DNA of 64,000 bases from contig NZ_AP021881.1 of the NCBI RefSeq assembly GCF_009937995.1, positions 558,001-622,000 of the forward strand. Direction: 5' to 3'. The notes beneath the pieces are model-generated. The model worked only from the letters and a program-made list of their open reading frames with translations. It did not search any database and was not told the origin of the DNA. The DNA is from Sulfuriferula nivalis. Its GTDB lineage: Bacteria > Pseudomonadota > Gammaproteobacteria > Burkholderiales > Sulfuriferulaceae. The position numbers were made by a program, and so were the translations under genes. Shown here in pieces: positions 2,729-38,520 of this stretch; positions within the stretch are counted from its first letter, which is position 1; the number at the start of each line of letters is the position of its first letter.

Positions 2729-4819
2729 GTGGCACGTAAAACTCCTATAGAACGTTATCGTAACATTGGTATCAGCGCACATATTGACGCTGGTAAAACA
2801 ACGACTACCGAACGTATCCTGTATTACACAGGTGTTTCGCATAAAATCGGTGAAGTTCATGATGGTGCTGCAACCATGGACTGGATGGAGCAAGAGCAAG
2901 AGCGCGGAATTACCATTACTTCTGCTGCTACAACTTGCTTCTGGAAAGGTATGGACAATAACTACCCAGAGCATCATATCAATATTATCGACACGCCGGG
3001 ACACGTAGACTTCACTATTGAAGTTGAGCGCTCGATGCGCGTGTTGGATGGCGCTTGTATGGTTTACTGTGCTGTTGGTGGTGTTCAACCGCAATCTGAA
3101 ACCGTTTGGCGTCAAGCTAATAAATATGGTGTGCCGCGTTTGGCTTTCGTAAACAAAATGGATCGTACTGGTGCGAATTTCATGAAAGTTTACGAACAAA
3201 TGCGCACTAGACTTAAGGCGAATGTAATTCCTATACAGATACCTATTGGTGCTGAGGAAAACTTTGCTGGTGTGGTTGATTTGGTAAAGATGAAAGCTAT
3301 CTACTGGGATGACTCTACCCAGGGTATGAAATTTGACGAGCGTGAAATTCCAGCTGAGTTGTTGGATGAATGTACGTCATGGCGTGAAAAAATGGTAGAA
3401 GCAGCTGCTGAGGCTAGCGAAGAGTTAATGGATAAGTATTTGGAAGAAGGTGATCTTTCAGTTGCTGAAATTAAGAGTGCGTTGCGTATTCGTACCATTG
3501 CAAGCGAAATCATGCCCATGATGTGTGGATCCGCGTTCAAGAACAAGGGTGTTCAGGCTATGTTGGACGCCGTAATTGATTACCTGCCTTCACCTAAAGA
3601 CATTCCACCGGTTAAGGGTGAATTGGAAGATGGTAGTGAAGGTGAGCGTAAGGCAGAAGACACTGAGCCTTTTGCTGCTTTGGCATTTAAGATTATGACT
3701 GATCCGTTTGTTGGTCAGTTGATATTCTTCCGCGTATATTCTGGTTCGCTCAATTCAGGTGATTCAGTTTATAACCCTATTAAGGGTAAAAAGGAGCGTA
3801 TCGGCCGTATTCTGCAGATGCATGCTAACCAACGCGCTGAAATTAAAGAAGTGTTGGCAGGTGATATTGCTGCTGCAGTTGGTTTGAAAGAGGCTACAAC
3901 TGGTGATACTTTGTGTGACCTGAATAAAACTATTATCTTGGAACGTATGATATTCCCTGAGCCGGTTATTCACGTTGCAGTAGAGCCTAAAACTAAGGCC
4001 GACCAAGAAAAAATGGGTATGGCGCTGAACCGTTTAGCTCAGGAAGATCCATCTTTCCGTGTTCGTACCGATGAAGAAACAGGTCAGACTATTATTTCTG
4101 GTATGGGCGAATTGCACCTGGAAATTTTGGTTGATCGTATGCGTCGCGAATTTAACGTGGAAGCTAATGTGGGTGCACCGCAAGTGGCTTATCGTGAAGC
4201 AATTCGCAAGGCTGTCGAAGTCGAAGGCAAGTTTGTTAAGCAGTCTGGTGGTAAGGGTCAGTACGGTCACGTATGGTTGAAAATGGAACCTAATGAGCAA
4301 GGTAAAGGCTTCGAATTTATTGATGCGATTAAGGGCGGTACGGTTCCACGTGAATTTATTCCTGCTGTAGAAAAAGGCTTGCGTGAAACATTACCAAATG
4401 GTGTCTTGGCTGGCTTCCCTGTGGTTGATGTCAAGGTTACGCTGTTTGATGGTTCATACCACGACGTTGACTCTAACGAGAATGCATTCAAGATGGCCGC
4501 GTCTATGGGTTTCAAAGACGGCATGCGTAAAGCTAGCCCAGTGCTTCTAGAGCCTATGATGGCTGTAGAAGTTGAAACACCTGAGGATTATATGGGTGAT
4601 GTGATGGGTGATTTGTCTTCACGTCGCGGTATTATTCAGGGTATGGATGACACGCCAAGCGGTAAAGTAATTAAAGCTGAAGTGCCATTGGCTGAAATGT
4701 TTGGTTACTCGACAACTGTTCGCTCTATGAGCCAGGGTCGTGCAACCTACAGCATGGAATTTAAACACTATGCTGAAGCGCCTAAGAATGTTACTGAAGC
4801 AATTATCAACAAAAAATAA
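2729..4819 (+). CDS. fusA: Translation elongation factor G
   Basis: This 696-residue GTPase drives ribosomal translocation and recycling. It starts at GTG ([14 protein letters not shown]), the usual EF-G N-terminus, and no upstream start fits better. The G motifs are complete: [12 protein letters not shown] (P-loop, about residues 18-29), DTPGHVDF, and [10 protein letters not shown]. Domain IV with the [16 protein letters not shown] segment and domain V follow at full length. It lies between rpsG and tuf, 22 bases upstream of the tuf ATG. Confidence 0.98.
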
Positions 4820-4841
4820 TCTGACTATAAGGAATTAAATC

Positions 4842-6032
4842 ATGGCAAAAGGCAAGTTTGAACGTACCAAGCCGCACGTAAACGTAGGCACAATTGGTCA
4901 CGTTGACCACGGTAAAACCACATTAACAGCAGCGATTGCGACTATCCTCTCGAAGAAATTCGGCGGTGAAGCCAAGAACTATGCTGATATTGACTCAGCG
5001 CCAGAAGAAAAAGCGCGTGGTATTACTATCAATACTTCACACGTAGAATACGAAACAGAAAAGCGTCACTACGCACACGTAGACTGTCCAGGTCACGCTG
5101 ATTACATCAAAAACATGATTACCGGCGCTGCACAAATGGACGGCGCAATCTTGGTTGTATCCGCTGCTGATGGTCCTATGCCACAGACTCGCGAACACAT
5201 CCTGTTGGCACGTCAAGTTGGCGTACCATACATCATCGTCTACATGAACAAAGCAGACATGGTTGATGATGCAGAATTGCTGGAACTCGTAGAAATGGAA
5301 ATTCGTGAATTGCTCAGCAAATACGACTTCCCCGGTGACGACACACCAGTTATCACCGGTTCAGCATTGAAAGCCCTTGAAGGCGACCAATCAGAAATCG
5401 GCGAAGCATCCATCTTCCGTTTGGCAGATGCGTTAGACAGCTACATCCCAGAACCGGAACGCGCAGTAGATGGCGCATTCCTGATGCCAGTTGAAGACGT
5501 ATTCTCAATTTCTGGTCGTGGTACCGTAGTAACAGGTCGTATTGAACGCGGCATCGTAAAAGTTGGTGAAGAAGTTGAAATCATCGGCTTGAAGCCAACC
5601 GTTAAAACCACCTGTACCGGTGTTGAAATGTTCCGCAAGCTGCTAGACCAAGGTCAAGCAGGTGACAACGTAGGTCTGTTGTTGCGTGGTACCAAGCGCG
5701 AAGACGTAGAACGTGGTCAAGTTTTGGCTAAACCAGGTTCAATCAAGCCGCATACAAAATTCAGTGCAGAAATCTACGTACTGTCTAAAGATGAAGGTGG
5801 TCGTCATACACCATTCTTCAATGGTTACCGTCCACAGTTCTACTTCCGTACAACTGACGTAACTGGCGCAGTAGATTTACCAGCAGGTACCGAAATGGTG
5901 ATGCCAGGTGATAACGTATCAGTATCAGTAGCACTGATCGCACCTATCGCTATGGAAGAAGGTCTGCGTTTCGCGATTCGCGAAGGTGGTCGTACTGTAG
6001 GTGCTGGTGTGGTCGCTAAAGTAATCGAGTAA
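4842..6032 (+). CDS. tuf: Translation elongation factor Tu
   Basis: This 396-residue GTPase delivers aminoacyl-tRNA to the ribosome. [18 protein letters not shown] and MNKADMVDD form the nucleotide site. A clear AAGGAA ribosome-binding site precedes the ATG. Its codon choice differs visibly from fusA and the ribosomal genes on either side: Val is mostly GTA, and Asn, His and Tyr are mostly C-ending. Many betaproteobacteria carry a second tuf near rpoB; none is visible here. The gene is closed by a hairpin that also carries the next promoter. Confidence 0.98.
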
Positions 6033-6038
6033 ATATAC

Positions 6039-6067
6039 TTGCTGTAAAACATAAAGGGCGGTATAAT
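6039..6067 (+). promoter_or_regulatory. Candidate S10-operon promoter
   Basis: TTGCTG at 6039-6044 and a consensus TATAAT at 6062-6067 are 17 bases apart. The predicted start, near 6074, is about 37 bases before the rpsJ ATG. The -10 box lies in the loop of the hairpin that follows tuf. This is a prediction from spacing and consensus only. Confidence 0.6.
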
Positions 6068-6077
6068 TCCGCCCTTT
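6053..6077 (+). terminator. tuf terminator-like hairpin
   Basis: AAAGGGCGG at 6053-6061 pairs perfectly with CCGCCCTTT at 6069-6077 around a 7-base loop. It starts 21 bases after the tuf stop. The arm ends in TTT, but the following bases are CGTATTTG, so termination may be partial. Confidence 0.6.
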
Positions 6078-6110
6078 CGTATTTGAAGTTCTGCTCTTTA
6101 AGGTGTGGTT

Positions 6111-6419
6111 ATGAAAAATCAAAAAATTCGTATTCGTCTCAAGGCGTTTGACTATCGTCTAATTGATCAGTCAGCATTAGAGATTGTCGAAACAGCAAAG
6201 CGTACTGGCGCAGTAGTTAAGGGTCCAGTTCCATTGCCAACTTCTATAGAGCGCTTCGATGTGCTCCGCTCTCCTCACGTTAACAAAACTTCTCGTGATC
6301 AATTTGAAATCCGTACGCATTTGCGTCTTATGGATATCATCGACCCAACAGATAAAACTGTTGATGCGTTGATGAAATTAGATCTGCCAGCTGGTGTTGA
6401 AGTAGAAATCAAGGTTTAG
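6111..6419 (+). CDS. rpsJ: 30S ribosomal protein S10
   Basis: The 102-residue protein is S10, a 30S head protein that also works in antitermination as NusE. The start at 6111 gives [19 protein letters not shown], which matches the family; an in-frame GTG six bases earlier is less likely. The motifs [16 protein letters not shown] and [12 protein letters not shown] are conserved. It heads the S10 block and is followed by a 79-base gap with a weak 6-bp hairpin (6430-6447). Confidence 0.97.
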
Positions 6420-6498
6420 TATTCCCGTACCAAGACGGTTTTCTTGGGGTATAAAGCTGGTCAATTGTAATCAGCGCCTTTTTGTTAAGGATAGAAAA

Positions 6499-7143
6499 AT
6501 GAGTTTAGGACTCGTCGGTCGTAAAGTAGGCATGACCCGACTCTTTGCTGAGGATGGTAGTACCATTCCAGTAACGGTGTTGGATGTGTCGAATAACCGC
6601 GTAACTCAGATTAAAACAACTGAAACTGATGGCTATAATGCGGTTCAGGTTGCTTTTGGTGTGCGTCGCGCTAGTCGTGTAAACAAATCAGCTGCTGGTC
6701 ATCTTGCTAAGGCGGGTGTTGAGGCTGGTCGTTTGCTAAAAGAATTTCGTTTGCCAGCAACTGAAGCTCCGGCATTGGTTGCGGGTAGCGTAGTTAGTGT
6801 TGAAATATTTCAGCCTGGTCAACTGGTTGATGTTACTGGAACTACTCTGGGTAAGGGTTTTTCTGGTGTAATTAAGCGTCATCACTTCTCATCTAACCGT
6901 GCAAGTCACGGTAACTCACGTTCGCACAATACGCCAGGTTCAATTGGTCAAGCGCAAGATCCAGGTCGTGTTTTCCCTGGTAAGCGTATGGCTGGTCAAT
7001 TGGGTGCTGTGCAGCGTACTGTGCAAAAACTGGAAGTGGTCCGTATAGATACTGAACGTCAATTGATATTGGTCAAAGGTGCTGTTCCAGGGTCTAAAGG
7101 CGGTCATGTTGTTGTTCGCCCTAGTGTGAAGGTAGGTGCCTAA
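6499..7143 (+). CDS. rplC: 50S ribosomal protein L3
   Basis: At 214 residues this is a typical L3, which binds near the 3' end of 23S rRNA and helps start 50S assembly. It begins [16 protein letters not shown] and contains [20 protein letters not shown], the loop that reaches toward the peptidyl-transferase centre. An AAGG ribosome-binding site sits 8 bases before the ATG. Its TAA stop shares one base with the rplD start. Confidence 0.98.
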
Positions 7144-7766
7144 TGGAACTAAAGATGATTAACGACAAAGGTCAGGACGCTACTGCTTTAGTTGCGTCTG
7201 ATGCTTTGTTCGGTCGTGAATATAATGAAGCCTTGGTGCATCAGATTGTTACTGCTTATATGGCTAATGCCCGTAGCGGTAATCGTGCACAAAAGGATCG
7301 TCGCACAGTACATCACAGTACCAAAAAGCCATGGCGTCAAAAAGGAACGGGTCGTGCTCGTTCTGGTATGACTTCAAGCCCTATTTGGCGTGGGGGTGGT
7401 CGTGCGTTTCCAAATAGCCCTGATGAGAATTTTACACAGAAGATTAACCGTAAAATGTATCGCGCAGGTATTGCGGCTATATTGTCCAAATTGGTTAGCG
7501 AAGGAAGTCTAAGTGTTGTTGATTCGTTAACAGTTGAAGCACCTAAGACCAAATTGCTTGCTAACAAATTGAAGGCGATGGGATTTAGTGATCGCGTTCT
7601 AATAGTTACTGATAACTTAGATGACGATTTGTGGATGGCTTCACGCAATTTGCCTAATGTAATGATTGTTGAGCCTCGTCATATTGATCCAGTGAGTATG
7701 GTTCGCTTTGGTCGTGTATTGATGACAAGCGCTGCTGTTAAAGCTGTTGAGGAGATGTTGGCATGA
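7143..7766 (+). CDS. rplD: 50S ribosomal protein L4
   Basis: At 207 residues this is L4, which lines the polypeptide exit tunnel. The tunnel-loop segment [15 protein letters not shown] is conserved. The start ATG overlaps the rplC stop by one base (TAATG), implying translational coupling, and the 3' end overlaps rplW by four bases (ATGA). In E. coli L4 represses the S10 operon through a long rpsJ leader. The leader here is short, so the same mechanism is not evident. Confidence 0.97.
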
Positions 7767-8074
7767 GTACATTAAAATTTAGTGATGCACGCTTGTTGCA
7801 AGTTATCCTGGCGCCGCAAATTTCTGAAAAGAGCACTTACGTTGCAGATAAACACGAGCAGGTGATCTTCCGTGTTTGTCCTGATGCAACCAAGCCTGAA
7901 GTTAAAGCAGCTGTTGAAATGCTGTTTAAGGTTGAGGTCAGTAGTGTAAATATGCTTGTTGTTAAAGGTAAGCAAAAGCGTTTTGGTCGTTTTATGGGTC
8001 GCCGTAGCGATTGGAAAAAAGCTTTTGTGTGCCTGAAACCTGGGCAAGAGATTAACTTTGCGGCGGGTCAGTGA
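7763..8074 (+). CDS. rplW: 50S ribosomal protein L23
   Basis: The 103-residue protein is L23, located at the tunnel exit where SRP and trigger factor dock. The motifs [14 protein letters not shown] and [16 protein letters not shown] are typical. It starts inside the rplD stop (ATGA overlap) and is followed by rplB after 10 bases. Confidence 0.97.
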
Positions 8075-8084
8075 GGAGTAAAAC

Positions 8085-8912
8085 ATGGCACTTATTAAAG
8101 TAAAACCAACATCCCCTGGTCGCCGTTCATTAGTTAAAGTTGTGACGCCAGATTTGCATAAAGGCAAACCTGTCGCTTCATTGCTGGCTCGTAAAACTAA
8201 AACGGCTGGCCGTAATAATAACGGTCATATTACTACCCGTCATATGGGTGGTGGTCATAAACAGCACTATCGCTTAGTAGACTTCCGTCGTAATAAAGAT
8301 GGTGTTCCAGCTAAGGTTGAGCGTTTGGAATATGATCCTAACCGTTCCGCAAATTTGGCGTTGTTATGCTATGCGGATGGTGAACGTGCATACATTATCG
8401 CCCCTAAGGGTGTTTCTGCTGGAATGCAGTTGATGAATGGTTCTGATGCGCCTATCAAGGCTGGCAATGCATTGCCACTTCGTAATATTCCAGTTGGTAG
8501 TACGGTTCATTGTATAGAAATGATGCCAGGCAAAGGTGCGCAAATCGCACGTTCTGCTGGTACTTCTGCCCAGTTGCTAGCTCGTGAAGGCGCTTATGCT
8601 CAACTGCGCTTACGCTCAGGTGAGATTCGTAAAGTGCATGTGGATTGCCGCGCTACTATCGGTGAAGTCGGTAATGAAGAACATTCATTACGTTCTATCG
8701 GTAAAGCGGGCGCTAATCGCTGGCGTGGTATTAGACCTACCGTTCGTGGTGTTGTAATGAACCCGGTTGATCACCCACACGGTGGTGGTGAGGGTAAGAC
8801 AGCAGCTGGACGTCATCCAGTTAGTCCTTGGGGTGTTCCTGCCAAGGGTTACCGTACTCGTAACAACAAACGCACTAGCGGTATGATTGTGCGTAGTCGT
8901 CATAAACGTTAA
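8085..8912 (+). CDS. rplB: 50S ribosomal protein L2
   Basis: At 275 residues this is a standard L2, needed for subunit joining and peptidyl-transferase activity. The functional loop [12 protein letters not shown] near the C-terminus is intact, as are [19 protein letters not shown] and the basic C-terminus. A GAGGAG ribosome-binding site lies just before the ATG. Confidence 0.98.
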
Positions 8913-33684: not shown

Positions 33685-34983
33685 TTATTTTCCGCGCCCA
33701 CCACTGCGATGTGGGCTGCTAGGTGCACGAGCTGCAGGTTTAGCTGCTGGGCGAGGACCGTTGCCAGAGGCTGGGCGGCGATTTTGACCACCTCCACCAC
33801 CGCCACTACGTTGGCTGCCATTTAATATCGGCTCCGCTTTGATGCGTGGGTCTACTTCAAAGCCAGGAAATACTTCAGCGATGATTTGGGTTTTGGTCAG
33901 GCGTTCGATTGCGGTTAATAACTTTAATTCATCAACGCAGACCAATGAAGTGGCTTCACCTTCGCTACCTGCACGACCAGTACGGCCGATGCGGTGAACG
34001 TAATCTTCAGCGACGTTAGGCAGTTCAAAGTTGACGACGTGCGGCAATTCGCTGATGTCGATACCGCGTGCAGCGATGTCGGTGGCGACCAGTACTTGTA
34101 ATGTGCCATCTTTGAATGTCTTGAGTGCACGAGTACGAGCAGCCTGGCTCTTGTTGCCGTGTATCGCCATGGCAGGAATGCCGTCTTTATCCAGATTTTC
34201 AGCCAGACGATTCGCAGCATGTTTGGTGCGGGTAAATACCAGCACTTGAAACCAGTTGTTGTCTTTAATCAGCAGGGTGAGCAATTCACGTTTGCGTTCA
34301 CGGTCAACAGCGTAGGCTTTTTGTGAAATCAGCGTGTTGGTAGCATTGCGGCGTGCGACTTCTATTGTGGTTGGCTTGATAAGTAAACTATCGGCTAACG
34401 CTTTGATTTCATCGGAGAAGGTCGCTGAGAACAACAAGGTTTGGCGCTGTTTAGGAATAAGCGCCATGATTTTTTTGATGTCGCGGATAAAGCCCATGTC
34501 CAGCATGCGGTCAGCTTCGTCGAGCACAAGAATTTCAACTTGTGATAAATCTACGGTGCGCTGTTGCGCATGGTCAAGTAAACGGCCAGGAGTAGCAACC
34601 AGTATGTCTACGCGTCCGCGCAGTTTCTGGATTTGTGGGTTGATATTGACACCGCCAAACATCATCATTGATTTAAGTGGCAGATACTTGCCATACTCAC
34701 GTACGCTTTCTTCTACTTGTGCGGCGAGTTCGCGCGTAGGCGTTAAAATCAAAGCGCGTATTGGTGCGCGATCAGATTTGGCGGGTATCGTGGATAAACG
34801 ATGCAAAATTGGCAACACGAAACCTGCGGTTTTACCCGTACCAGTTTGTGCGCCACCAAGCAAATCACCCCCTGTCATAACGACGGGAATGGCTTGAGCC
34901 TGGATAGGGGTAGGTTCGGTATAACCGCGCTCAGTAACCGCGCGAACGATGGCTTCGGACAAGCCTAGGGTAGCAAATGACAT
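33685..34983 (-). CDS. rhlE: DEAD-box ATP-dependent RNA helicase, RhlE type
   Basis: The 432-residue protein has all core DEAD motifs: the Q motif ([14 protein letters not shown]), [39 protein letters not shown] and [10 protein letters not shown]. The tail of about 60 residues is rich in Gly, Arg and Pro (residues 375-432), as in RhlE proteins. These unwind short RNA duplexes and act in ribosome maturation and RNA decay. The gene stands alone; its 5' leader has a small inverted repeat CGTTAC/GTAACG (35011-35029). The exact subfamily name is inferred from layout. Confidence 0.88.
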
Positions 34984-35235: not shown

Positions 35236-36186
35236 ATGAGTTATAAATTGAATATGGTTATGGGTGCAGTCGCATTGAATTTGCTGGCTTTGCCAGCAGC
35301 CCATGCAGAGCTGATTCGCGGCGTGGCACAACAAATTACACATCAGCCTTGGGAAAATGACAACATGCCTACGGGTAAGGGCTGGGCGGTTAAAGCGCCT
35401 GCCGGTCAAGGGTATGCGGTTAGTACAGGACGGAAAACTACTGGGGCAAACGGAATAAACTATCATGGTGGCCCAGTGATGCTGGGCACGACCAATGTTT
35501 ATTTTATCTGGTATGGTAATTGGGCTGGCAATACGGCATCCAGTATCTTGCCTGATTTGATAGGTGGTTTAAGTGGTTCGCCTTATTTCAATATCAACAC
35601 AACTTATTATAACGCGAGTAACGTCGCTGTGACTAATGCTACATTGCTGAAAAAGACTGCAACGGACAATTACTCGCATGGCAAAGTATTAGCTGATACA
35701 GATGTTTCAGCCATCGTGAGTGGTGCGATAGCCAATGGCTCGCTGCCAGTAGATGCCAACGCAGTGTATTTTGTGCTGACTTCAGCGGATGTGACTGAAA
35801 CTTCAGGTTTCTGTACGTCATATTGTGGCTGGCATACCCATGGAACTATCAGCGGACAAGATATTAAATATGCTTTCGTTGGTAATCCTGATCAATGTCC
35901 AAGTTCTTGTGCGGCACAAACAACCAGCCCTAACGGTAATGCAGGTGCAGATGGCATGGCGAGTGTGATGTCACATGAACTGGAAGAAGCGGTGACGGAT
36001 CCGGATCTGAATGCATGGTATGACAGCACAGGTAAGGAGAATGCGGATAAGTGTGCGTGGAAATTTGGCAGCACTTATACCACCAGCAATGGTTCGATGG
36101 CGAATATGAAGTTAGGTACCCGTGATTACCTGATACAGCAGAACTGGTTAAATGCATCTGGCGGTTTGTGTACTTTGTCACATTGA
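35236..36186 (+). CDS. Secreted EXORDIUM / phosphate-induced-protein-like protein
   Basis: The start at 35236 follows a strong GGGAGGGG site and gives a clear signal peptide (MSYKLNMVMGAVALNLLALP) with likely cleavage after AHA, for 316 residues; an in-frame TTG at 35182 is less likely. The mature protein resembles the PHI-1/EXORDIUM family, best known from plant cell walls: YHGGPVMLGTTNVYFIWYGN, DANAVYFVLTSADV, CGWHTHG and MSHELEEAVTDPDLNAWYD. The HELEE near residues 247-251 recalls a metal-site helix, but no enzyme activity is established for the family. Six cysteines suggest disulfides. A secreted NTF2-like gene follows. Confidence 0.8.
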   Translation: MSYKLNMVMGAVALNLLALPAAHAELIRGVAQQITHQPWENDNMPTGKGWAVKAPAGQGYAVSTGRKTTGANGINYHGGPVMLGTTNVYFIWYGNWAGNTASSILPDLIGGLSGSPYFNINTTYYNASNVAVTNATLLKKTATDNYSHGKVLADTDVSAIVSGAIANGSLPVDANAVYFVLTSADVTETSGFCTSYCGWHTHGTISGQDIKYAFVGNPDQCPSSCAAQTTSPNGNAGADGMASVMSHELEEAVTDPDLNAWYDSTGKENADKCAWKFGSTYTTSNGSMANMKLGTRDYLIQQNWLNASGGLCTLSH

Positions 36187-36193
36187 GTGAGGG

Positions 36194-36220
36194 CTATCGG
36201 GTGTAGTGTGCGCCCGATAG
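36194..36220 (+). terminator. 10-bp hairpin after the EXORDIUM-like gene
   Basis: CTATCGGGTG (36194-36203) pairs with CGCCCGATAG (36211-36220), with one G-T pair and a 7-base loop, 7 bases after the stop. The T run that follows is weak, so it may only attenuate transcription into the next gene or protect the upstream mRNA. Confidence 0.55.
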
Positions 36221-36240
36221 TTACTTAGCGGAGGTGCGGT

Positions 36241-36732
36241 ATGAAAATATTGACTGTATTGTTTTGGCTGGGACTTAGCTTAGGCTCAACGAGTTATGCG
36301 GCTGACAATGTAGTATCGGTAACGCGATTGGTCATGGTGTTTAACACATTAGAAGCGGAGTTAGATGTTGCTGCGCAACATAACAATGTAGAAGTTATAA
36401 ATAAATTACTCGCGCCGAATTTTGAAATGCGGGTGGGCGCCATGCCCGGTAATCCTGTGCCACGTGCGGCCTGGCTGCATCAATTACAGACGGTTCCGTC
36501 TGCACCATTGATTCCTGAGCAAATGGCTGTGCATGATTATGATAACGTGGCTGTGGTCAGTTTTTTGAATAAACGCAGCACATCGGCAGGTGATATATAT
36601 ATTGTTGATGTATGGAAAAAGCTGGCGTTAAGCTGGCAATTAGCCGTGCGCTACGCAAGCCCTGCCGGACGTGCTGATTTTGTTATTCCGGGCGCTGCAT
36701 TGAATGAGCCTGTGCTGGATAAACGTTACTAG
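36241..36732 (+). CDS. Secreted NTF2-like (SnoaL/DUF4440 type) protein
   Basis: This 163-residue protein has a signal peptide (MKILTVLFWLGLSLGSTSYA). The mature region looks like an NTF2-like fold: an N-terminal helix with NTLEAELDVAAQHNNVEVIN, then LLAPNFEMRVG and a paired-strand end DIYIVDVWKKLALSWQLAVR. No catalytic residues can be assigned and the function is unknown. GGAGG lies 6 bases before the ATG. It follows the EXORDIUM-like gene by 54 bases on the same strand, and its stop is 3 bases from the convergent mutL stop. Confidence 0.7.
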   Translation: MKILTVLFWLGLSLGSTSYAADNVVSVTRLVMVFNTLEAELDVAAQHNNVEVINKLLAPNFEMRVGAMPGNPVPRAAWLHQLQTVPSAPLIPEQMAVHDYDNVAVVSFLNKRSTSAGDIYIVDVWKKLALSWQLAVRYASPAGRADFVIPGAALNEPVLDKRY

Positions 36733-36735
36733 AGC

Positions 36736-38520
36736 TTATTTCCCGCGCATAAACATCTTATCTAACTCCGTCAAACTGATTTGAAACCATGTTGGCCGAC
36801 CGTGGTTACACTGGTTGGCTCGCTCGGTTTTTTCCATATCACGCAGTAACGCATTCATTTCAGTAATGCTTAATTGCCGATTAGCGCGAACTGCGCTGTG
36901 ACATGCCAATGTGCTCAGGCGTTCATTACGCTGTTCGGTAAGTGCATTACTTGCGCCTGATGTACGCAATTCGCGTAATAAGTCACGTGTAAGCTGGGCG
37001 GGGTCAGCGGTCTGTAGTAGTTGTGGGATGGCGCGAATAGCGAGGCTGGTAGGCGATAGCGGCGCGATTTCGAAGCCCATCATATTCAGCGCATCAGCAT
37101 GTTCAGCGGCGGTCGCAACGTCCAGTTCATCCACATTGACAGCTATCGGTATCAACAAAGGCTGGCTGGCTATGGTCTGCAGGTCGAGCGCGGTTTTGAA
37201 TTTTTCATACATGATGCGTTCGTGCGCGGCGTGCATGTCAACGAGTACTAACCCCGCTTGATTTTGCGCCAGGATATAAATGCCGTGGAGTTGCCCCAGC
37301 GCGTAGCCTAACGGGTGGTTGTCAGTGTTAAACGCGGGTTGTGGTGCGGGCGCGGTGTCACGCGACATCAACTCATAATAATTGTCTGGTTGCGCTATAC
37401 CCAAAGGCATTGCTGCCTGATATGACGGCGCATAACTGGGGCATGGTGCGTAGGTGGGCGTCGTGTTGCTGCTGATGTGGGTGGTGTCGGCGCTGGTTGT
37501 GCCGATTTGTACTGTTGCGGCAGGCGCTTGCCCTGCGCGACCTGCTAGTGACTTATTGATGGCATGGTAAATAAATTGATGCACAGCACGACTGTCGCGG
37601 AAACGCACTTCGGTCTTGGCAGGGTGGACGTTGACATCGACCAGCGCAGGGTCTAGTGTCAAAAACAGGCAATAAGCAGGATGACGGTCATGGTGCAAAA
37701 TATCGTGGTAGGCTTGTTTGAGCGCGTGTGCCAGTAATTTGTCACGGACAAAGCGACCATTCACAAACATATATTGCGCATCGCGGCTGGCACGGGAATA
37801 GGCAGGTAATGCACTCATGCCGTGCACGCTAAGACCAGCCGTGGTTTCAGCAACATTTACCGCAGCTTGATTGAAGTCCGCACCTAGTACCGCACTAATT
37901 CGTTCCGCCATATCTTGTTCGCGCCAGAGTTGCACGGCACGATCATTGTGATGCAAGCTGAAACTGACATCGGGGCGGGCAAGGGCGATGCGCTGAAAAA
38001 CATCGTTGCAATGGGCGTATTCTGTTGCGGCTGATTTGAGGAATTTACGCCGTGCAGGCGTGTTAAAAAACAAATCCCGCACTTCGATAGTCGTGCCTGT
38101 AGTGAGCGCCGTGGGTTGAACTTCACTGGGTGACGCACCATCGGCCTGTATTTGATACGCCAGTTCTGATCCGTGGGCGCGGCTGGCTAAACGCACTCGC
38201 GCAATCGATGCGATACTTGCCAAGGCTTCGCCTCGAAAACCTAAACTGGCAACGCATTCCAGATCTTCCAGGCTGCTGATTTTGCTGGTGGCGTGGCGGG
38301 CCAGGGCCAGATTCAATTGAGCCTCTTCTATCCCTACGCCATTATCCGCCACACGAATTAACTGTGTGCCACCCAATTCCAGATTTACGCGTATCTCGGT
38401 TGCCCCCGCATCCAGACTGTTTTCAAGCAACTCTTTAAGCGCAGCGGCAGGGCGCTCAACGACTTCACCAGCGGCAATCTGGCTGATGAGGATGTCAGGG
38501 AGCGGGTGGATAGTGGGCAT
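36736..38520 (-). CDS. mutL: DNA mismatch repair protein MutL, endonuclease type
   Basis: At 594 residues this is full-length MutL. The GHKL ATPase has LLENSLDAGA, VADNGVGIEE, ATSKI and GFRGEALASI (residues 30-110). The C-terminal domain carries DMHAAHERIMYE (about residue 427), matching the D-x-HA-x2-E-x4-E metal-binding motif of nicking MutL proteins, plus ACHSAVRA and CNHGRP (about 570). It therefore probably nicks DNA itself in a MutH-independent pathway. The start codon shares its A with the vapC stop (TAATG), so translation may be coupled to the toxin gene. Confidence 0.97.
   Translation of the reverse strand: MPTIHPLPDILISQIAAGEVVERPAAALKELLENSLDAGATEIRVNLELGGTQLIRVADNGVGIEEAQLNLALARHATSKISSLEDLECVASLGFRGEALASIASIARVRLASRAHGSELAYQIQADGASPSEVQPTALTTGTTIEVRDLFFNTPARRKFLKSAATEYAHCNDVFQRIALARPDVSFSLHHNDRAVQLWREQDMAERISAVLGADFNQAAVNVAETTAGLSVHGMSALPAYSRASRDAQYMFVNGRFVRDKLLAHALKQAYHDILHHDRHPAYCLFLTLDPALVDVNVHPAKTEVRFRDSRAVHQFIYHAINKSLAGRAGQAPAATVQIGTTSADTTHISSNTTPTYAPCPSYAPSYQAAMPLGIAQPDNYYELMSRDTAPAPQPAFNTDNHPLGYALGQLHGIYILAQNQAGLVLVDMHAAHERIMYEKFKTALDLQTIASQPLLIPIAVNVDELDVATAAEHADALNMMGFEIAPLSPTSLAIRAIPQLLQTADPAQLTRDLLRELRTSGASNALTEQRNERLSTLACHSAVRANRQLSITEMNALLRDMEKTERANQCNHGRPTWFQISLTELDKMFMRGK

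What the first reader, a model, noticed from the sequence alone, without database searches (positions are those of the whole stretch)
35236..36732. EXORDIUM-like secreted protein with a secreted NTF2-like partner in a bacterium
The PHI-1/EXORDIUM family is known mainly from plant walls. This one has a bacterial signal peptide, six Cys and HELEEAVTDP, and is followed 54 bases later by a small secreted NTF2-like protein on the same strand, separated by a 10-bp hairpin. The pair could form a cell-surface or extracellular system whose role is unknown. The HELEE segment invites a test for a metal site.
Basis: partly seen in the sequence, partly recalled or inferred. Interest (0 to 1): 0.6.

Follow-up and report, generated by a model that had tools for sequence, protein, structure and literature searches.

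The report
Secreted EXORDIUM-family protein with NTF2-like partner
A protein family known mostly from plant cell walls is also scattered through soil and water bacteria, where it often sits beside one small secreted partner gene and has a predicted shape like metal-dependent proteases, which offers a testable idea for a family whose biochemical activity we found described nowhere.

Summary
ORF 35236-36186 is a Sec-exported Phi_1/EXORDIUM protein (Pfam PF04674, E 3e-34), with six conserved Cys and HELEEAVTDP at 247-256. Exactly 54 bases later lies a secreted NTF2-like gene (36241-36732). The genome is Sulfuriferula.

1. Co-occurrence is real. The partner lies near Phi_1 in 33 of 80 loci from several phyla, and it is the only recurrent neighbour. 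In Sulfuriferula both genes are present or absent together at one site between rhlE and mutL (5 of 18 genomes), and the empty site was seen. The two protein sets diverge together (Mantel r 0.50; 0 of 5000 permutations).
2. The AlphaFold2 model (pLDDT 87) puts H247-E248-x-x-E251 in a helix. Foldseek's best hits are nearly all metzincin zinc proteases, but weakly (best E 4e-3). H200, H247, E248, E251, D255, E268 and D271 are invariant in 68 sequences. HExxE has a precedent in the zinc protease CLCA1. Site geometry could not be measured.

Best reading: a secreted zincin-like metalloprotein, possibly a peptidase, with a dispensable NTF2-like accessory protein. Activity, metal and contact are untested. 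Bacterial Phi_1 was reported in 2009; the pairing and zincin reading were not found in the papers searched.

The parts
35236..36186 (+). Secreted Phi_1/EXORDIUM-family protein, 316 aa
   Evidence: PF04674 E 3.2e-34; AF2 model pLDDT 87.3; 68-row alignment
35236..35307 (+). Predicted Sec signal peptide, cleavage after AHA (residue 24)
   Evidence: Sequence, hydropathy 2.12 over 11 residues; low pLDDT of the first ~35 residues
35833..35835 (+). His200 codon of the CGWH motif, invariant; candidate site residue
   Evidence: 68/68
35974..36003 (+). HELEEAVTDP: candidate HExxE metal site (H247, E248, E251, D255) at the end of helix 236-254
   Evidence: H247, E248, E251, D255 68/68; helix in model
36037..36054 (+). 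ENADKC: E268 and D271, invariant acidic residues after the helix (candidate further ligands), and C273
   Evidence: 68/68 each
36194..36220 (+). Intergenic hairpin, 8 perfect pairs (10 with a G-U); role unknown
   Evidence: not terminator-like by scan
36241..36732 (+). Secreted NTF2-like (DUF4440-like) partner, 163 aa
   Evidence: PF14534 24.7 bits, just below cut-off; model pLDDT 87.6; best PDB match 2r4i NTF2-like, E 6.2e-7
33685..34983 (-). Flanking rhlE-type DEAD-box helicase, divergent; left border of the site at which the pair is present or absent
36736..38520 (-). Flanking mutL, convergent; right border of the site

Best explanation
The two genes form a small, horizontally spread secretion pair. 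Both proteins are exported by Sec (inferred from signal peptides). The Phi_1 protein is a zincin-like metalloprotein, probably with three disulfides: H247 and E251 of an HExxE helix hold a metal together with one or more of E268, D271, D255 or H200, and E248 is placed as the general base of a zinc peptidase. It most likely cleaves a peptide or similar polymer bond outside the inner membrane (inferred; weaker than the fold claim). The NTF2-like protein is its dedicated accessory, most plausibly a periplasmic chaperone, inhibitor or pocket-type modulator of the enzyme or its product. It is useful but not essential, because about half of the relatives lack it. Shown here: family, secretion signals, conserved adjacency, joint presence or absence at one site, correlated divergence, invariant site residues. 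Inferred: metal, catalysis, contact.
For: Family match. Partner near Phi_1 in 33 of 80 loci: 29 downstream on the same strand, 3 convergent, 1 upstream. It is the only recurrent neighbour; the other multi-locus clusters are antisense ORFs of Phi_1 itself, generic superfamilies or synteny of close relatives. In the genus, 5/18 genomes have Phi_1 and the same 5 have the intact partner; G011 and G015 have rhlE and mutL under 200 bp apart with neither gene. In 297 genomes of a second phylum, 3 of 4 strong partner hits (over 100 bits) fall in the 14 genomes with Phi_1 (hypergeometric about 3e-4 by hand). In 369 genomes of the class, the only partner lies beside Phi_1. Mantel r 0.50, 0/5000. AF2 model of high confidence; the PDB list is dominated by metzincins, including CpaA-CpaB (6o38); the independent viral library also gives mimivirus metalloprotease and ulilysin first. 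Invariant H200, H247, E248, E251, D255, E268, D271, with HExxE and the downstream acids kept in most divergent members. HExxE is the stated motif of the zinc protease CLCA1 (PMC6851300). A secreted metzincin with a dedicated chaperone exists (CpaA/CpaB, PMC4713064).
Against: Foldseek matches are weak (none below 1e-3; TM 0.30 on the query, 0.43 on the target). No sequence-level link: hhalign with 21 bacterial Reprolysin_4 proteins gives under 1% probability, and no peptidase family appears in a Pfam scan of 68 members. The second metal position is Glu, not His, and the third-ligand GxxH is absent. One paired copy (L120, G425) has lost the motif (KELLS) yet keeps a partner. 47 of 80 loci lack the partner in the DNA held, though 17 of these have under 2 kb downstream. 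Two strong partner genes (G387, G690) have no Phi_1 within the DNA held.
Confidence: 0.5

Rival explanations
1. Phi_1 has a zincin-like scaffold but is not an enzyme: the invariant acidic residues and histidines form a structural (for example calcium) site in a binding protein that recognises a polysaccharide, sugar or peptide outside the cell, and the NTF2-like protein is a second ligand-binding component.
For: Plant EXO is reported as an apoplastic growth and sugar-response mediator with no enzymatic activity described in the passages read (PMC2661892, PMC3691544). HExxE with several acids could suit calcium. A paired copy without the motif exists (L120). Aromatic residues are highly conserved (W92, W96, W199, W261, W275, W304).
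Against: Invariance of the exact HExxE arrangement, with E248 kept in 68/68, is more than a structural site needs. Structural neighbours are proteases.
Confidence: 0.3
2. The adjacency is hitch-hiking: two unrelated genes carried together on horizontally moved DNA, without functional coupling.
For: Both are rare and patchy (2/369 genomes of the class have an A1-type match). The Phi_1 tree mixes phyla. Shared transfer also produces correlated trees.
Against: The partner is the only recurrent neighbour over several phyla, and it persists in changed orientations (3 convergent, 1 upstream), at 1.2 kb in L062, with other sequence inserted between in G017, and at the end of a four-copy Phi_1 array in G682. 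Neutral passengers should be lost or replaced.
Confidence: 0.12
3. The NTF2-like protein is the immunity or inhibitor protein of a secreted antibacterial Phi_1 peptidase.
For: Small secreted protein encoded directly behind a putative secreted hydrolase. Protease-inhibitor gene pairs (alkaline protease AprA with AprI) are known to me from general knowledge. Patchy, horizontal spread.
Against: About half of Phi_1 loci lack it, whereas immunity would be obligatory unless those enzymes differ. No secretion-system markers recur nearby. No toxicity data.
Confidence: 0.12

Closest known systems
Phi_1 / EXORDIUM family (PF04674), plant EXO and EXL proteins; Solibacter homologue (PMC2661892)
   Same: Same Pfam family over residues 74-286; N-terminal export signal; about 300 aa, extracellular in plants
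   Different: Bacterial host, Sec signal, adjacent NTF2-like partner. Plant residues at the HExxE position were not compared, as no plant sequences were on hand
Metzincins (adamalysin, reprolysin, TACE; bacterial CpaA)
   Same: Best structural neighbours of the model; HE motif in a helix; secreted. CpaA also has a dedicated partner (CpaB)
   Different: HExxE in place of HExxH; no GxxH/D third ligand; no sequence-profile similarity; weak fold scores
CLCA1 (HEXXE zinc metalloprotease domain)
   Same: HExxE motif in a secreted protein related in layout to ADAM proteins (PMC6851300)
   Different: No homology tested or claimed; CLCA has VWA and other domains
DUF4440 / NTF2-like proteins (PDB 2r4i, 3f7s, CaMKII hub)
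   Same: NTF2-like fold (Foldseek E 6e-7); DUF4440 match just under cut-off
   Different: Secreted; own subfamily with invariant R29, F61, D123, W125, R137 and a Lys-containing C-terminal tail; tied to Phi_1

Membership tests
Phi_1/EXORDIUM (PF04674) | Pfam profile over gathering score | tested here: met
   119 bits against 25; all 68 relatives match
Phi_1/EXORDIUM (PF04674) | Export signal and extracellular location | tested here: inconclusive
   Signal peptide present in sequence; location not measured
Metzincin zinc proteases | HExxHxxGxxH/D zinc-binding consensus | tested here: not met
   HELEEAVTDP; E in place of the second His in all 68 relatives, no GxxH/D
Metzincin zinc proteases | Metzincin fold | tested here: inconclusive
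   Top PDB hits nearly all metzincins, but best E 4e-3 and TM below 0.5
Metzincin zinc proteases | Sequence-profile homology | tested here: not met
   hhalign probability under 1% against 21 bacterial Reprolysin_4 sequences
Zincin-like metalloprotein (broad) | Metal bound by the HE helix plus downstream residue(s) | not testable with these tools
   Model coordinates are not exposed; no metal in prediction. Candidate ligands invariant
NTF2-like superfamily / DUF4440 | NTF2-like cone fold | tested here: met
   Model pLDDT 87.6, 239 PDB matches below 1e-3, best 2r4i
NTF2-like superfamily / DUF4440 | DUF4440 gathering score | tested here: not met
   24.7 against 25.2 bits; so a sister subfamily rather than a listed DUF4440 member

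The most novel reading that the evidence does not exclude
The EXORDIUM family is a divergent HExxE zinc peptidase clan, and bacteria carry it as a mobile two-gene unit with a dedicated NTF2-like regulator. The plant growth proteins would then be extracellular proteases or inactivated descendants of them.
Probability: 0.3. Interest if true: 0.82.

Novelty: new variant of a known kind. Interest (0 to 1): 0.57.

Why it matters
EXORDIUM proteins influence plant growth and sugar responses, but the papers read here describe no enzymatic activity. A bacterial version with an invariant HExxE-type site, a protease-like predicted fold and a co-inherited partner gives a small, genetically tractable system in which that activity can be tested, with named residues to mutate. 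The papers searched held no mention of the pairing or of a zincin link; that library is partial.

Tried and rejected
Solved structures by sequence: no relative of Phi_1; the weak transglutaminase match in 'aWyd..gaenaDkcaW' (E 0.16; Pfam best 0.0019 in 5 members) was judged a short-motif coincidence. NCBIfam: nothing. Plasmids: two weak Phi_1 records, no partner; phages: no Phi_1 match, so no vehicle was found. Metzincin profile comparison by sequence: negative. Hairpin as terminator: not supported, and the corresponding stretch in two relatives folded differently (part of the L013 stretch is probably coding), so no conserved element was shown. Plant comparison: no plant sequences available; recalled sequences were not used as evidence. 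Some search attempts failed on handles, frame or length.

Full report
Observation. The window carries, on the + strand, a 316-codon gene (35236-36186) and 54 bases later a 163-codon gene (36241-36732), between a divergent rhlE-type helicase gene and a convergent mutL. The first matches Pfam Phi_1 at E 3.2e-34; the second matches DUF4440 just below the curated score. Both start with typical Sec signal peptides. The six Cys, the HELEEAVTDP segment and the hairpin are as described.

How widespread. A scan of one genome per bacterial and archaeal species found 290 stretches encoding relatives; the 80 kept come from Pseudomonadota, Acidobacteriota, Myxococcota, Actinomycetota, Verrucomicrobiota and Elusimicrobiota. 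Yet the gene is rare in any one group: 2 of 369 genomes of the class with the alignment profile, 14 of 297 in the phylum of G415. The Phi_1 tree mixes phyla (for example Rhodanobacteraceae with Thiobacillaceae, Methylocystaceae and Methylococcaceae with Acidobacteriota), which suggests horizontal transfer, although many branches are weakly supported. Schroder et al. 2009 knew a single bacterial homologue (PMC2661892).

The partner. With a profile of the NTF2-like protein, 33 of the 80 loci have it near Phi_1: 29 downstream on the same strand, mostly within 300 bases, 3 convergent and 1 upstream. Clustering all ORFs of the loci found no other recurrent neighbour beyond generic superfamilies, antisense frames and synteny of close relatives. 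In the genus, the five genomes with Phi_1 are exactly the five with an intact partner; a sixth genome has a partner fragment at a contig end. All five lie between rhlE and mutL; G011 and G015 have the two flanks less than 200 bases apart with neither gene, and G001 and G002 hold other genes there. In the second phylum, of four strong partner genes three lie in Phi_1 genomes beside Phi_1. Distances within the two protein sets correlate (r 0.50, none of 5000 permutations). Partner presence needs 15 changes on the Phi_1 tree, at least 4 forced by well-supported branches, fewer than in shuffles. So the link is real, repeatedly lost or gained, and not obligatory. Shared transfer could explain part of the tree correlation, but not the variety of arrangements.

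The site. In 68 relatives H200, H247, E248, E251, D255, E268, D271 and C197, C225, C273, C312 never vary. Divergent members (G331, G409, the G682 array, L127, L139) keep HExxE and the downstream acids. One second copy in G425 has lost it. The AlphaFold2 model from 68 sequences has pLDDT 87.3 and pTM 0.83, with the HExxE at the C-terminal half of helix 236-254. Foldseek against the PDB puts zinc metalloproteinases of the metzincin group at nearly every one of the first 50 places, but at E 4e-3 or weaker and TM 0.3/0.43; the viral library independently puts metalloproteases first. A sequence-profile comparison with bacterial Reprolysin_4 proteins fails, and the classical HExxHxxGxxH/D is absent, so it is not filed as a metzincin. 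HExxE is described as the motif of the zinc-dependent protease domain of CLCA1 (PMC6851300).

The NTF2-like protein. The model (pLDDT 87.6) matches NTF2-like structures (2r4i, E 6e-7). R29, F61, D123, W125 and R137 are invariant. CpaA, one of the structural neighbours, is a secreted metzincin with its own chaperone CpaB, which shows that an enzyme-plus-dedicated-partner arrangement is known for such proteins; whether CpaB resembles the NTF2-like protein was not tested.

Verdict. A confirmed, conserved secretion pair in which an EXORDIUM-family protein is probably a zincin-like metalloprotein. Fold claim about 0.65, active hydrolase about 0.4, functional link of the pair about 0.85.

Noticed in passing
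L124 (G017:C28:80000-95000), about 6336-8329: In this Sulfuriferula genome about 2 kb with minus-strand reading frames lies between Phi_1 and the NTF2-like gene, separating a pair that is adjacent in the relatives.
   Followed up: partly
L171 and L172 (G001, G002), between rhlE and mutL: Genomes without the pair carry other genes at the same place (a ~600 aa secreted ORF that looks nucleotidase-like, and a ~277 aa ORF), suggesting a variable site.
   Followed up: partly
L170 (G682:C1:224000-238000), 3124-8903: Four tandem Phi_1 genes followed by one NTF2-like gene.
   Followed up: partly
L120 (G425:C279), 442-1395: Phi_1 copy with the HExxE changed to KELLS, still next to an NTF2-like gene: natural site-less variant; another copy in the genome (L086) has the motif.
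   Followed up: partly
L081: MAG labelled Bordetella parapertussis groups strongly (99*) with an Acidobacteriota sequence (L088): label or binning looks doubtful, or recent transfer.
   Followed up: no
window 36670-36732 and A2 alignment end: The NTF2-like partners end in a conserved Lys-containing tail (DKRY, PKKY or GKE/GKD/GKQ) outside the NTF2 fold.
   Followed up: no
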